Position numbers and translations under genes: made by a program. DNA of 42,374 bases from Candidatus Zixiibacteriota bacterium. Lineage in GTDB: Bacteria > Zixibacteria > MSB-5A5 > GN15 > FEB-12. Positions within the stretch are counted from its first letter, which is position 1. Each line of letters starts with the position of its first letter. Below, in pieces: positions 2,050 to 23,411 of this stretch. Below the pieces are notes generated by a model that was given only the letters and a program-made list of their open reading frames with translations, had not been told where the DNA came from and did no database searches. Location: positions 1-42,374 of the forward strand of contig JAQUSF010000017.1 in NCBI GenBank assembly GCA_028715215.1. The letters are read 5' to 3'.

Positions 2050-3507
2050 TTATAAAACCGGCGGTTTGACGCCGTTAAAAAATAACCAGGATATCAGCAA
2101 GCCTATCCAGATTATGAATCCGAATAAGCAGATAACATAAACCAGGGCCAGCCGGCCGATACCTTCCTGCCAGAGTTTACGGAAATTAGACACCACGCCG
2201 ATTGTGAAGAATGTCATGACGAAGAAAATACTGCGAAAGACATTACCCTGTCCCATCGCGGTCTTAGCCTGACTTACCCAGTTCGGTAGAAGAATGCCAA
2301 TGAGGATAATGACAAAGAACGTGAACATGTAACCGAGGATGAATTTGGGGAACCGGTCCCACATCTGGCGGGCTTTGATTTTTTCGCCGGGAAGGCGTTG
2401 AATTTTAGCCGACCAGATCCAGGCCAGGATGAATGCCCAGACAGCGATAAAGACGTCAATGAATACTTTCACGGTCGTAGTCGTGGCCATGATCCAGCCC
2501 TGCTGGTATTGAATGCCCTGTTCGGCCAGGGCTTTTGTGAGGATCAGTGATTCCGTGATTGCCCCGCTGGCGACTGCAGCACCGTCGGTTTTGACAGCCA
2601 GGCCCATCCAGGCACCGGCCACCAGGGGCTCGTTGTACAAAAAATTCTGAGCGATAAAGGGAAGGAGTATCAGCTCAACCACGGCGAAAATGACTACCAG
2701 GGAGGAAACCATAATAGGGACTACCGGCCGGGCTTTAATTGCCGAACCGGTAGCAATGGCGGCGGAAACACCGCAAATGGAAATCCCGCTGGCCAGCGGA
2801 ACCGCCCATTCCCGGCTGAATTTAAAATATTTCCGGGCGATAAAATATACCAGCGCCCAGTAAATAAGGTAGGCTTCCACGATGGCGCACAAGCCGCGAA
2901 ACATCACTGACGTAGCCAGGCCCAGCTGTTCCGCGGCGGTGATACCGAGGAAACCGCCCAGGATAACAATAGCCGTTTTTATATATAGTTCCGGGCGGAT
3001 AGCTTCGCCCATCACCCGGGAAAATCCGGGCGCAAAATTACCGATGAATAAGCCCGCCAGAAGAGCGATTATATAACCGGCTTCAAGAGTCAAATTTAAC
3101 GACCAGGATATCCCGTAATTATCCAACTGGTTGGGAGTGGCCGCGATGTAAGCCCAGCCGCCGATTATCCAGCAGATATAACTTATGAAAAATACCAGGG
3201 TGAATCCGAGTACGAATTTTTTCAAATTGGCTTTGAGCCAGTATGCCCCGACCATGAAAATAACCAGAAGAAAAAGATAGGTGATGAGCAGGGAAAGTAA
3301 TCCCGGAAGATTGGCATAGTTGCCGGAGGTGGGTTTAAGGGCCATTGCCAGATTAGTCCATACTTTGGTCGTTATTACCCAGCCTAAAATATCCCAATTT
3401 ATAAAAGCAGTTAAAGACAAAAGGAAGATGAATAAACCGATCACGACCGCCAGCCAGTCTTCACTGATTTTTGCTTCTCCTGTTTTTAAGGAAACTTTTG
3501 TGTCCAA
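2050..3507 (-). CDS. YeiH/UPF0324-family putative sulfate or sulfite exporter
   Basis: Polytopic inner-membrane protein of 485 aa with roughly 11-12 hydrophobic helices. The family glycine/alanine-rich stretches are visible: GGFLGITAAEQLG (about 185), SGISICGVSAAIATGSAI (about 240) and AGAWMGLAVKTDGAAVASGAI (about 295). These match the putative sulfate exporter family (Cons_hypoth698). Typical YeiH is about 350 aa, so this is a long form with extra helices at both ends. The start is TTG at 3507 behind AAAGGAGGG with 7-nt spacing. A perfect palindrome lies about 75-90 bases upstream. Substrate is not proven by sequence; members are linked to sulfite, sulfate or taurine metabolism. Confidence 0.85.
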   Translation of the reverse strand: MDTKVSLKTGEAKISEDWLAVVIGLFIFLLSLTAFINWDILGWVITTKVWTNLAMALKPTSGNYANLPGLLSLLITYLFLLVIFMVGAYWLKANLKKFVLGFTLVFFISYICWIIGGWAYIAATPNQLDNYGISWSLNLTLEAGYIIALLAGLFIGNFAPGFSRVMGEAIRPELYIKTAIVILGGFLGITAAEQLGLATSVMFRGLCAIVEAYLIYWALVYFIARKYFKFSREWAVPLASGISICGVSAAIATGSAIKARPVVPIMVSSLVVIFAVVELILLPFIAQNFLYNEPLVAGAWMGLAVKTDGAAVASGAITESLILTKALAEQGIQYQQGWIMATTTTVKVFIDVFIAVWAFILAWIWSAKIQRLPGEKIKARQMWDRFPKFILGYMFTFFVIILIGILLPNWVSQAKTAMGQGNVFRSIFFVMTFFTIGVVSNFRKLWQEGIGRLALVYVICLFGFIIWIGLLISWLFFNGVKPPVL

Positions 3508-3579
3508 TTATGCCCTCCTTTAACTTGCCCTCAATGGTTTTTATTCTAATTTGTTAATAGTATGGCATTTCTTTAAAAA

Positions 3580-3597
3580 TAGTGAATTTATTCACTA
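3580..3597. promoter_or_regulatory. Perfect palindromic operator upstream of the exporter
   Basis: TAGTGAAT-TT-ATTCACTA is an 18-bp perfect inverted repeat. Read as GTGA-N6-TCAC it has the geometry of Crp/Fnr-superfamily sites. It lies 73-90 bases upstream of the exporter start codon. A possible minus-strand -10 (TAGAAT, 3548-3543) sits between the two, with no good -35, which would fit an activated promoter. Which regulator binds is unknown. Confidence 0.55.
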
Positions 3598-3610
3598 AGA
3601 TTACAGCTCG

Positions 3611-3646
3611 TTATTTTATTAGTCAAGATTTATAATTGTAAAATAA
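3611..3646. repeat. Inverted repeat TTATTTTA/TAAAATAA in the exporter upstream region
   Basis: Two perfect 8-bp AT-only arms are separated by 20 bases, between the response-regulator stop and the exporter operator. It could be a weak hairpin or a second protein site. Its AT-only composition means chance is a real alternative. Confidence 0.25.
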
Positions 3647-3764
3647 TCAGGTCGGGAAGTACCCGGTTTAGTCGGTCATGAATTAATTTCTTTTAAGCAA
3701 ATTTAATAAACCCGGGAGAATTTTAGTAATATCCGCCAGACAAGGAGCCTTCTCGAAGACAGGT

Positions 3765-4466
3765 TTATTCTTCGACCAGGATGTAACCTTCACTGCGTAC
3801 GGATTTGATCAATTGAGGATTTATACTGTTATCCTGAAGTTTTCTTTTGAGGCGCGATATCCGGTTATCGATACAGCGGTCAAGGCCGTCGTACTCGGTT
3901 TTTAACAGTACCTGGTAAAGGGACTCCCGGGAAACTATGCGGTTTTTGTTTGAAGCCAGAAGCCATAGTAAATCAAACTCGGAAGCGGTCAGATTTATTT
4001 CCCGGTTATCGATCGAGACCACCCGTTTGGTTTTATCGAGCAGGATATTTCCGATTTGCAGGTTAGGCTTTTGGTTATCGGGCGGAATAGCGACTTTGGA
4101 AACATTGGTTTTCATCGAGAAGTGTTTTATCCGGTCAGTCATGATTTGTCCGGTTACCGGAGCCGTTAGGAAATCGTCTGCCCCGCAATCCAGAAGGGCT
4201 TTTTTATATTCGGTATTGTTGTGGGGAGCGATGACAAGAATCGAACCTTCAAAATATCGGCGAATTTTCGAGCATAGTGAAAGCGTCTTTAAAGAAGAGC
4301 CGTCAGTGTTGACTATTAAAACCTGTGGTTTTTCAGTCATTAAAAGGGGCAATATTTTATGGTGTGAGAGCTCCATTGTTGTTTTGATTTCACACTCGTC
4401 CAACCAGTCACCCTCGATATCCGGCAATGAGGGGTCGGTCTTAAGAATTAAGAGTTTAGGTTTCAT
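3765..4466 (-). CDS. OmpR/PhoB-type response regulator with degenerate receiver
   Basis: I start the protein at MKPKLLILKTD (4466), where a receiver domain normally begins. The longer ORF from 4619 adds 51 residues with no receiver match and no ribosome site. The N-terminal ~115 residues have the receiver pattern, but the phospho-accepting Asp position reads VLIVN and the conserved Lys of the 'KP' motif is Ala (LTAPV). The C-terminal ~100 residues are a clear winged-helix DNA-binding domain (INLTASEFDLLWLLASNKNRIVSRESLYQ, then IDNRISRLKRKL and SVRSEGYIL). It is probably phosphorylation-independent. No histidine kinase is adjacent. It is divergent from the permease at 4818 and upstream of the exporter, so it may control one or both. 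Confidence 0.83.
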   Translation of the reverse strand: MKPKLLILKTDPSLPDIEGDWLDECEIKTTMELSHHKILPLLMTEKPQVLIVNTDGSSLKTLSLCSKIRRYFEGSILVIAPHNNTEYKKALLDCGADDFLTAPVTGQIMTDRIKHFSMKTNVSKVAIPPDNQKPNLQIGNILLDKTKRVVSIDNREINLTASEFDLLWLLASNKNRIVSRESLYQVLLKTEYDGLDRCIDNRISRLKRKLQDNSINPQLIKSVRSEGYILVEE

Positions 4467-4817
4467 ACTTTTCAATAATCCCTGACCTTGGCATATTTTT
4501 CCTAATAAGACAGGCAGCCTGTAAAAAAAGATTAATAGGCGGATAAAAAAAGTGGATTCCGCCAGGTCGAACAGACCTTTGCCATATTGAATAATTGTGA
4601 CAAACAATTTCTTCCGCATCGGCGGTAAAGTGTCACAGGACAGGTTTATATTATCCTGAATTAAACTAATCTATTTACTTTCTGCTGGTTCGGACTGGAA
4701 AACAAAATGCGGGAAACGAACCGCGGTTTTTATAAATCTTGACTTTTCTGATTCCGTATTGTTTGATTTCCTGACTATTAAGGTTTGGAAACCCCGGGAA
4801 GAACGGTTATAGAGGTT
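4467..4817. other. Divergent intergenic region between response regulator and permease
   Basis: These 351 bases separate two divergent genes if the starts chosen here are right. They hold a possible plus-strand promoter (4739-4767) and the open but unconvincing 51-codon extension of the response regulator. I see no other structure. Confidence 0.5.
4739..4767 (+). promoter_or_regulatory. Candidate sigma-70 promoter for the permease
   Basis: TTGACT, 17 bases, then TTTGAT: 5/6 and 4/6 matches to the -35 and -10 consensus with ideal spacing. It would start transcription near 4774, leaving a normal leader before ATG 4818 but only about 11 nt before the TTG at 4785. Confidence 0.4.
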
Positions 4818-6032
4818 ATGAATTCAATTGTGCTGGTTGTTTTTATAGTTGTTTATCTGGGGATGATACTGGGACGCCTTCCCTGGCTGGCACTGGACCG
4901 AACCGGGGTAGCTCTTCTGGGCGCTATCCTTCTGATAGTTACCGGGGTGGTGAGCGACCAGCAGCTAATCTCTGCGGTGGATGTACCCACGATTGTTCTC
5001 CTTTTTGGCTTGATGGTTCTTTCCGGGCAGTTTCGTCTGAGTGGCTTTTATTCCAAGCTTGTTCGTCAAATTGGCTGGCTGGATATAACTCCCGGCCAGT
5101 TACTGGCTTTGTTTATTGCCGTGGTTGGGGTGCTTTCGGCGGTTCTGGCTAACGATATTGTCTGTCTGGCCATGACACCGGTGATAATCGAAGTCTGTAT
5201 CAAGCGGCGGCTCGACCCCAAGCCTTTTTTGCTGGCGTTGGCCTGTGCCGCTAATGTCGGCTCGGCAGCCACTCTCATCGGCAACCCGCAGAATATTCTC
5301 ATCGGCCAGGTTCTGAACCTGTCCTTCAGCGGGTATATGCTCGATGCCGTCTTACCCTCGGCGGTCGGCCTGGTCATCACCGGGGCAGTAATTGCCCGCC
5401 TGACAGAGGGAAAATGGAAACGGGAGACAAAAATGCCCCGGATTCAGGCTCCCGCTTTTAACCGGTGGCAGACTTACAAGGGGATGTTTCTGCTGGTCGG
5501 CATCCTGGTCATTTTTTTGGCTAACATCTGGCCTCGTGATATAGTCGCCCTGGCGGTTGCGGCGGTATTGCTCTGTTCCCGAAAAATGCGTTCCCGCGAC
5601 ATGCTGGGTCTTATCGACTGGCAGTTATTAGTGCTGTTTATTTCGCTTTTTGTCGTCAATTATGCCGTTAATGAAACCGGCTATCTGCAGAAATTACAGG
5701 CCGACCTGAGCGGAATGGGGGTGGATATCGGCCTTCCGGCCCCGCTTTTTATAGTATCCGTTTTCTTAAGCAACCTGGTATCGAACGTCCCGGCGGTGAT
5801 GCTGTTGTTGAAGGCTTCGAATCATCCCGCCGCCGGTTCCATACTGGCGCTATCATCTACTTTGGCGGGCAATCTGCTGGTGGTCGGCTCCATCGCCAAT
5901 ATTATCGTCATTGACCAGGCTGCCCGGCTGGGTATCAGGATATCCTGGCGGGAACATGCCCGTATCGGAGTTCCCGTCACTCTTCTGACTCTGGGAGTGG
6001 CCGCTCTCTGGCTGTGGTTTAGGTCATTTTAA
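4818..6032 (+). CDS. ArsB/NhaD/SLC13-type anion permease
   Basis: Hydrophobic 404-aa inner-membrane transporter of the ion transporter superfamily. It has two helical halves, each with a signature: ANVGSAATLIGNPQNILIG in the first (about residue 147) and SNLVSNVPAVMLLL in the second (about 315). ANDIVCLAMTPVIIE also fits the ArsB/citrate-type fold. Such proteins move dicarboxylates, sulfate, arsenite or Na+/H+, and the sequence alone does not choose. The ORF track begins at TTG 4785. I prefer ATG 4818 (MNSIVLVVFIVVYL) because the first membrane helix begins at once and the candidate promoter fits. Divergent from the response regulator. Confidence 0.8.
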   Translation: MNSIVLVVFIVVYLGMILGRLPWLALDRTGVALLGAILLIVTGVVSDQQLISAVDVPTIVLLFGLMVLSGQFRLSGFYSKLVRQIGWLDITPGQLLALFIAVVGVLSAVLANDIVCLAMTPVIIEVCIKRRLDPKPFLLALACAANVGSAATLIGNPQNILIGQVLNLSFSGYMLDAVLPSAVGLVITGAVIARLTEGKWKRETKMPRIQAPAFNRWQTYKGMFLLVGILVIFLANIWPRDIVALAVAAVLLCSRKMRSRDMLGLIDWQLLVLFISLFVVNYAVNETGYLQKLQADLSGMGVDIGLPAPLFIVSVFLSNLVSNVPAVMLLLKASNHPAAGSILALSSTLAGNLLVVGSIANIIVIDQAARLGIRISWREHARIGVPVTLLTLGVAALWLWFRSF

Positions 6033-22713: not shown

Positions 22714-23391
22714 GTGGGAAACCAGTCTTTTTTAAAAAACTGCTTTTTGTGTCATGGGCTGGATAAAAGTGAACTTGATACCCTGGCCCGTATCGCCATC
22801 GTCAGGAAGGTTGCATCCGGCGAGGTGCTTTTTTTAGAAGGCGACCCGGCGGCGGGCTTTTTTGTCCTATTGTCCGGCCGGGTGCGCATATATAAAGCCT
22901 CGCCCGAGGGCAAAGAGTTCACCCTGCACCATATTAGCCCGGGGCAGATGTTTGCCGAAGCGGTTCTTTTCCGAGGCAATACTTATCCAGCCAATGCCGC
23001 CGCCGTAGAAAATTCTCTGGTGGCATTCATTCCCAAAGACAAATTTATTTCCCTAATAACCACCTCGCCCCAGATATCCATGAAAATGCTCAGCTCCCTG
23101 TCCGGATTTATCCGCCAGTTCAACCAGCAGGTCGAGGACCTTTCCCTGAAGGAGGTTTCCGCCCGGCTGGCGTCGTATTTTTTGAAAAAAGCGGCCGGCA
23201 GCGGCAGTAATGTCTTTATACTGGATATCAGCAAGTCGGAGCTGGCGCGGATGCTGGGCACCATCAGCGCGACGCTGTCCCGCAACCTTAAGAAAATGAA
23301 AGAGTTAGGGATTGTCCGGGTTGACGGCCAGACCATCACTATACTTGATATGGACCGCCTGGCGACTCTCGCCGGGGACAATAAAATTTAA
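22714..23391 (+). CDS. Crp/Fnr-family transcriptional regulator
   Basis: 225 aa, GTG start. Residues ~18-120 form a cyclic-nucleotide-binding-type beta-roll (GEVLFLEGDPAAGFFVLLSGRVRIYKASPEGKEFTLHHISPGQMFAEAVLF). The C-terminal winged helix has the recognition region ISKSELARMLGTISATLSRNLKKMKELGIV. Two Cys sit near the N-terminus (NCFLCHGL), but FNR's four-Cys cluster pattern is incomplete, so it is closer to DNR/NNR-type or heme-sensing members. It lies directly upstream of the redox genes and of an FNR-like box at 23398, so it probably activates that operon in response to NO or low oxygen (inferred). Confidence 0.9.
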   Translation: MGNQSFLKNCFLCHGLDKSELDTLARIAIVRKVASGEVLFLEGDPAAGFFVLLSGRVRIYKASPEGKEFTLHHISPGQMFAEAVLFRGNTYPANAAAVENSLVAFIPKDKFISLITTSPQISMKMLSSLSGFIRQFNQQVEDLSLKEVSARLASYFLKKAAGSGSNVFILDISKSELARMLGTISATLSRNLKKMKELGIVRVDGQTITILDMDRLATLAGDNKI

Positions 23392-23397
23392 CCCCTT

Positions 23398-23411
23398 TTG
23401 ACTTAAATCAA
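23398..23411 (+). promoter_or_regulatory. FNR/DNR-type binding box
   Basis: TTGACTTAAATCAA differs by one base from TTGAT-N4-ATCAA. It lies 62 bases upstream of the ferredoxin start codon and 7 bases after the stop codon of the Crp/Fnr gene, the expected place for direct control by that regulator. Confidence 0.72.

What the first reader, a model, noticed from the sequence alone, without database searches (positions are those of the whole stretch)
3580..3597. Perfect GTGA-N6-TCAC palindrome upstream of the exporter
An 18-bp perfect palindrome with Crp/Fnr-superfamily geometry sits 73-90 bases before the exporter start. The only Crp/Fnr protein in the window is encoded about 19 kb away beside a differently shaped box (TTGAC-N4-ATCAA), so a second regulator is implied, perhaps a redox- or sulfur-responsive one.
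Basis: partly seen in the sequence, partly recalled or inferred. Interest (0 to 1): 0.5.

Follow-up and report, generated by a model that had tools for sequence, protein, structure and literature searches.

The report
Rex operator before sulfite/sulfate exporter-like gene
The palindrome is most likely the docking site of Rex, a well-known NADH-sensing repressor, placed on the start of a gene for a sulfite/sulfate exporter-like membrane protein; Rex sites are ordinary in bacteria, but Rex control of this exporter has not, as far as I could find, been reported.

Summary
The motif is real: TAGTGAA-TTTA-TTCACTA at 3580-3597, two 8-bp arms around an asymmetric TT, so not a strictly perfect 18-mer. 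Palindromicity alone is unremarkable (8 comparable inverted repeats in the window), but the sequence is specific. The genome (a Candidatus Zixiibacteriota MAG, ~94% complete) encodes a bona fide Rex and only one Crp/Fnr protein with a detectable Crp-type DNA-binding domain, the window's own, whose recognition helix is FNR-like. In 24 of 28 zixibacterial rex genes the same operator directly follows the -10 box of the rex promoter; the exporter site has this layout (TTGACT-N17-TAATCT-operator). The core is enriched genome-wide (8 vs 1 control) and in relatives (200 vs 47). Other sites precede redox and fermentation operons, and two are letter-perfect in the sister species. Best reading: NAD+-bound Rex represses the YeiH-like exporter; high NADH derepresses it. 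Weak point: six zixibacterial orthologues (75-81% identical) lack the box and the sister species lacks the gene, so this operator itself is not footprinted. New member of a known kind.

The parts
3580..3597 (-). Rex-type operator TAGTGAA-TAAA-TTCACTA (minus strand), directly after the predicted -10 box of the exporter promoter
   Evidence: Sequence; 12 of 14 defined positions of TTGTGAA-N4-TTCACAA; top-scoring Rex site of the window with a matrix built without it, none as good in a random 3.2-Mb genome; unique in window
3621..3626 (-). predicted -35 box TTGACT
   Evidence: TTGAC starts 29 nt before the operator; in 25 zixibacterial rex promoters the nearest TTGAC starts 23-35 nt before the operator, mostly 29-35
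3598..3603 (-). predicted -10 box TAATCT (weak, 3 of 6), 17 nt after the -35 box, abutting the operator
   Evidence: Sequence and comparison with rex promoters; not mapped experimentally
2050..3507 (-). YeiH-like (PF03601) membrane transporter, 485 aa, TTG start
   Evidence: PF03601 1.9e-19, above cut-off; TIGR00698 only weak, below cut-off
3514..3521 (-). ribosome-binding site AAAGGAGG of the exporter gene
   Evidence: Sequence
3765..4619 (-). OmpR-type response regulator with degenerate receiver, upstream of the exporter on the same strand; probably its own transcription unit
   Evidence: PF00486 6.1e-21, PF00072 below cut-off
22714..23391 (+). the genome's only detected Crp/Fnr-type regulator; FNR-like recognition helix (ISATLSRNLKK), not the RETVGR of CRP; not the likely binder of the box
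   Evidence: recognition-helix rule from general knowledge

Best explanation
The palindrome is an operator for the redox-sensing repressor Rex. The promoter of the YeiH-like exporter is TTGACT-N17-TAATCT and the operator follows immediately, so it covers the predicted start of transcription. A Rex dimer with NAD+ would sit there and block RNA polymerase; when NADH rises (electron-acceptor shortage, fermentative or sulfur-respiring conditions) Rex would bind NADH, leave, and the exporter would be made together with the genome's Hdr/hydrogenase, nuo, DsrK-like and fermentative genes. Shown here by computation: operator match, presence of Rex, the same operator and promoter layout at rex across the phylum, and a coherent set of other sites. 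Inferred: binding, the sign of regulation, and the exporter's substrate (sulfite or sulfate, from YeiH).
For: Genome has one Rex: C160 1484-2149, NF003995 265.9 bits vs cut-off 126; nearest solved structure is a Rex (5zz5, E 7.2e-46), with QVRKDLSFFG..G.RGLGY and GVGNIG motifs kept. An operator TTGTGAAGCTTTTCACAT lies in the rex promoter. In 24 of 28 zixibacterial rex genes located (own included) a site with at most 2 mismatches lies at the same place, reversed-pattern controls never below 4; TTGAC starts 23-35 nt before it, and 29 nt before at the exporter, where a TTGAC at 26-35 has about 1.4% chance. Core GTGAA-N4-TTCAC: 8 vs 1 control in this genome, 200 vs 47 in 20 relatives, above control in all but one (binomial 6e-24). 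Inner A/T of the motif, not part of Crp boxes, kept in 21 of 34 half-sites (p 4e-5). Sites precede aldehyde dehydrogenase, two HdrCB operons (one with NiFe hydrogenase), sulfhydrogenase beta, IorA, nuo, Rrf2-DsrK-like, thiolase/3HCDH/acyl-CoA dehydrogenase. The sites at the aldehyde dehydrogenase and DsrK-like operon are identical in the sister species at 71-78% DNA identity. S. aureus precedent: the TGTGA-N6-TCACA motif of anaerobic genes proved to be Rex, TTGTGAAW4TTCACAA, with A/T-rich spacer preferred (PMC2883068).
Against: The exporter's site differs from consensus at both position 2 and 17 (A/T instead of T/A), and scores weakly with a matrix made only from rex promoters (10.0; 68 random sites as good). 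None of six zixibacterial orthologues (75-81% identical) has the site, and the sister species lacks the gene. The -10 is weak. No expression or binding data. The own-genome matrix was built from sites I chose for resembling the consensus, though without this one.
Confidence: 0.85

Rival explanations
1. A second Crp/Fnr-family regulator (HcpR- or CRP-like) binds GTGA-N6-TCAC and controls the exporter.
For: GTGA-N6-TCAC is the CRP/HcpR half-site pattern (general knowledge); yeiH orthologues of Solidesulfovibrio magneticus carry tandem TTGTGA-N6-TCAC-like boxes that fit a Crp/HcpR motif at least as well as Rex.
Against: Only one protein with a Crp-type HTH in the genome and its recognition helix is FNR-like; of the other cNMP-binding hits none has a PF13545 match. 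Conserved inner A/T and the rex promoter sites favour Rex.
Confidence: 0.06
2. Operator of some other dimeric regulator (MarR, TetR, GntR, LysR type) not encoded beside the exporter.
For: Such families bind 16-20 bp A/T-rich palindromes (general knowledge); the two outer mismatches leave room; the site is absent before orthologues whose genomes do have Rex.
Against: Full fit to Rex core, spacer length and promoter position; the genes examined beside the exporter are an OmpR-type regulator and a CitMHS transporter.
Confidence: 0.06
3. Chance palindrome or a weak terminator/attenuator hairpin: the minus-strand RNA can form a 7-bp stem followed by UUUUU downstream of the response regulator.
For: Stem-loop plus U-run is present on the minus strand; palindromes of this size are not rare in the window.
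Against: Only two G-C pairs, region folds no better than shuffles (z -0.9), not among terminator-like sites, no Rfam match; does not explain the fit to Rex.
Confidence: 0.03

Closest known systems
Rex operator (ROP), TTGTGAA-N4-TTCACAA, of Streptomyces/Staphylococcus/Bacillus Rex
   Same: GTGAA core, 4-bp A/T spacer, 18-bp length, position on the promoter, cognate Rex encoded, operator also in the rex promoter
   Different: A/T at positions 2/17 instead of T/A; found before a YeiH-like exporter in Zixiibacteriota, where no paper on Rex was found
Rex repression of sat in Desulfovibrio vulgaris (Christensen 2015, as described in PMC7531388)
   Same: Rex acting on a sulfur-metabolism gene through a site in the promoter
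   Different: Target there is sulfate adenylyltransferase, here a transporter; organism and pathway differ
YeiE-YeiH sulfite-resistance module of Salmonella (PMC12880088)
   Same: Regulated YeiH-family membrane protein
   Different: There a sulfite-binding regulator (YeiE) from a divergent gene; here a predicted NADH-sensing repressor encoded elsewhere; the protein here is a longer, distant member (TIGR00698 below cut-off)
CRP/HcpR boxes (TGTGA-N6-TCACA)
   Same: GTGA-N6-TCAC half-sites
   Different: Inner positions of the genome's sites follow Rex; no second Crp/Fnr protein found

Membership tests
Rex operator / Rex regulon | 18-bp inverted repeat with GTGAA-N4-TTCAC core, mostly TT/AA outside | tested here: met
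   Core exact, 12 of 14 positions; the outer pair deviates symmetrically
Rex operator / Rex regulon | Cognate Rex protein encoded in the genome | tested here: met
Rex operator / Rex regulon | Site on or next to the promoter of the controlled gene | tested here: met
   TTGACT-N17-TAATCT then site, as in rex promoters; the promoter itself is predicted only
Rex operator / Rex regulon | Other sites before rex and redox/fermentation/respiration genes | tested here: met
Rex operator / Rex regulon | Conservation of this operator before orthologous genes | tested here: not met
   Absent from six zixibacterial orthologues; no orthologue in the sister species. Not a defining requirement of a Rex site, since regulon membership is often lineage-specific; it limits the claim
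Rex operator / Rex regulon | NAD+-enhanced, NADH-reversed binding | not testable with these tools
   needs a gel shift
Crp/Fnr operator (second paralogue) | A further Crp/Fnr protein with a GTGA-reading helix | tested here: not met
   One PF13545 hit only, FNR-like helix; MAG ~94% complete
YeiH-like transporter (PF03601) | PF03601 domain above cut-off | tested here: met
   70.2 vs 24.5 bits
YeiH family proper (TIGR00698) | TIGR00698 above cut-off | tested here: not met
   21.7 vs 232.6 bits: a distant, longer subfamily

The most novel reading that the evidence does not exclude
Rex, an NADH/NAD+ sensor, directly controls export of an oxidised sulfur anion in Zixiibacteriota, tying sulfur-anion efflux to the cell's reducing state as part of a Rex regulon with Hdr, hydrogenase and DsrK-like electron-transfer operons.
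Probability: 0.45. Interest if true: 0.45.

Novelty: new member of a known kind. Interest (0 to 1): 0.3.

Why it matters
It corrects the regulator class, supplies a Rex regulon for a phylum where none was found in the papers searched, and gives a testable link between redox state and a poorly understood sulfite-resistance transporter family. It is also a caution that GTGA-N6-TCAC boxes cannot be assigned to Crp/Fnr without checking for Rex.

Tried and rejected
Phylogenetic footprinting before yeiH: 6 zixibacterial and ~80 other orthologues, no shared box except tandem GTGA boxes in two Solidesulfovibrio magneticus assemblies. Rfam on 3300-4900: nothing. Terminator/attenuator: fold not better than shuffles. 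Response regulator linkage: not found beside yeiH in any orthologue locus examined except a weak 26% hit in L147; in the sister species its relative (44%) has no good Rex-like site nearby, and no close exporter orthologue was found there. A Rex matrix from rex promoters alone ranks the site only third in the window. An alignment call failed on wrong frames and was not needed.

Full report
Observation. The stretch 3580-3597 reads TAGTGAATTTATTCACTA: 8-bp arms around TT, so almost but not strictly a perfect palindrome. It lies 72 nt before the TTG start (3507, good ribosome-binding site) of a minus-strand PF03601 (YeiH-like) transporter. Inverted repeats of this size are common in the window (8) and GTGA-N6-TCAC within one mismatch is at chance; the exact string is not.

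Where it is. Related genomes and records place the contig in Candidatus Zixiibacteriota; the own genome is a 3.2-Mb, 167-contig assembly, 93.9% complete.

Which regulator. Read as TAGTGAA-TTTA-TTCACTA the site fits the Rex operator TTGTGAA-N4-TTCACAA, with only the second base on each side deviating. The genome encodes one Rex and one Crp/Fnr protein with a Crp-type HTH, the one in the window, whose recognition helix ISATLSRNLKK has the S-R of FNR and not the RETVGR of CRP (rule from general knowledge). So a second Crp/Fnr regulator is not supported, within the limits of a 94% complete assembly.

Calibrating the motif without the exporter. All 28 relatives searched encode Rex. In 24 of the 28 rex genes I could place (own included) a site with at most two mismatches, typically TTGTGAA-N4-TTCACAT, lies just after the -10 box of the rex promoter; the best reversed-pattern match never had fewer than four mismatches. 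TTGAC starts 23-35 nt before these sites, and 29 nt before the exporter's, whose promoter reads TTGACT-N17-TAATCT-operator. The core GTGAA-N4-TTCAC is enriched 8:1 in this genome and 200:47 over 20 relatives (p 6e-24). Among the 17 sites within one mismatch of TTGTGA-N6-TCACAA, where positions 7 and 12 were free, 21 of 34 half-sites carry the Rex inner A/T (p 4e-5).

The regulon. Other strong sites lie mostly between genes and precede rex; an aldehyde dehydrogenase; an HdrC-HdrB operon; an HdrCB-HdrA-like operon with NiFe hydrogenase; a sulfhydrogenase beta subunit/AsrA-like operon; indolepyruvate:ferredoxin oxidoreductase; the nuo operon (cut by the contig end); an Rrf2 regulator with a DsrK-like protein; and thiolase/3-hydroxyacyl-CoA dehydrogenase/acyl-CoA dehydrogenase. 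In the sister species the sites of the aldehyde dehydrogenase and the DsrK-like operon are letter-perfect while the surrounding DNA is 71-78% identical. This is the classic make-up of a Rex regulon (general knowledge). One of the eight core matches (C149) lies inside a gene and is probably chance; some sites with one mismatch (e.g. C83) also lie inside genes.

Precedents. In S. aureus the anaerobic motif first written TGTGA-N6-TCACA proved to be the Rex site TTGTGAAW4TTCACAA; positions 4 and 5 matter most and an A/T spacer is preferred (PMC2883068), all kept here. In D. vulgaris Rex represses sat, a sulfur gene (PMC7531388). YeiH confers sulfite resistance in Salmonella and is controlled there by YeiE (PMC12880088). 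No paper joining YeiH and Rex was found.

Limits. The site is not conserved before six zixibacterial orthologues (75-81% identity) and the sister species has no orthologue, so it may be a recent, lineage-specific regulon entry. The -10 is weak, and with a matrix made from rex promoters alone the site is only moderate. The substrate is inferred: TIGR00698 is far below cut-off. Binding and sign of regulation are untested.

Verdict. A new member of a known kind.

Noticed in passing
L080 3886-3932 and L084, upstream of the yeiH orthologue in Solidesulfovibrio magneticus: Two tandem TTGTGA-N6-TCAC-like boxes 29 nt apart (TTGTGAATTGCGGCACAA and TTGTGAACAAAATCACTT) before an exporter orthologue in a Desulfovibrio relative; could be HcpR or Rex sites.
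   Followed up: partly
L127 1308-1775 (G000:C38): A stand-alone 155-aa cyclic-nucleotide-binding protein without HTH sits inside a sulfhydrogenase-type operon under a Rex-like site.
   Followed up: no
window 2050-3507: The 485-aa YeiH-like protein is 65-81% identical over its length across Zixiibacteriota, Acidobacteriota, Nitrospirota and other phyla, but scattered within its own phylum (full-length close orthologues in 6 of 132 other genomes), suggesting horizontal transfer.
   Followed up: no
window 23398-23411: The TTGAC-N4-ATCAA box lies 7 nt after the Crp/Fnr gene and before the next gene (23458), so it more likely serves that gene than the regulator.
   Followed up: no
window 3765-4619: OmpR-type regulator whose receiver domain scores below the Pfam cut-off, with an N-terminal extension; probably an atypical response regulator.
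   Followed up: no
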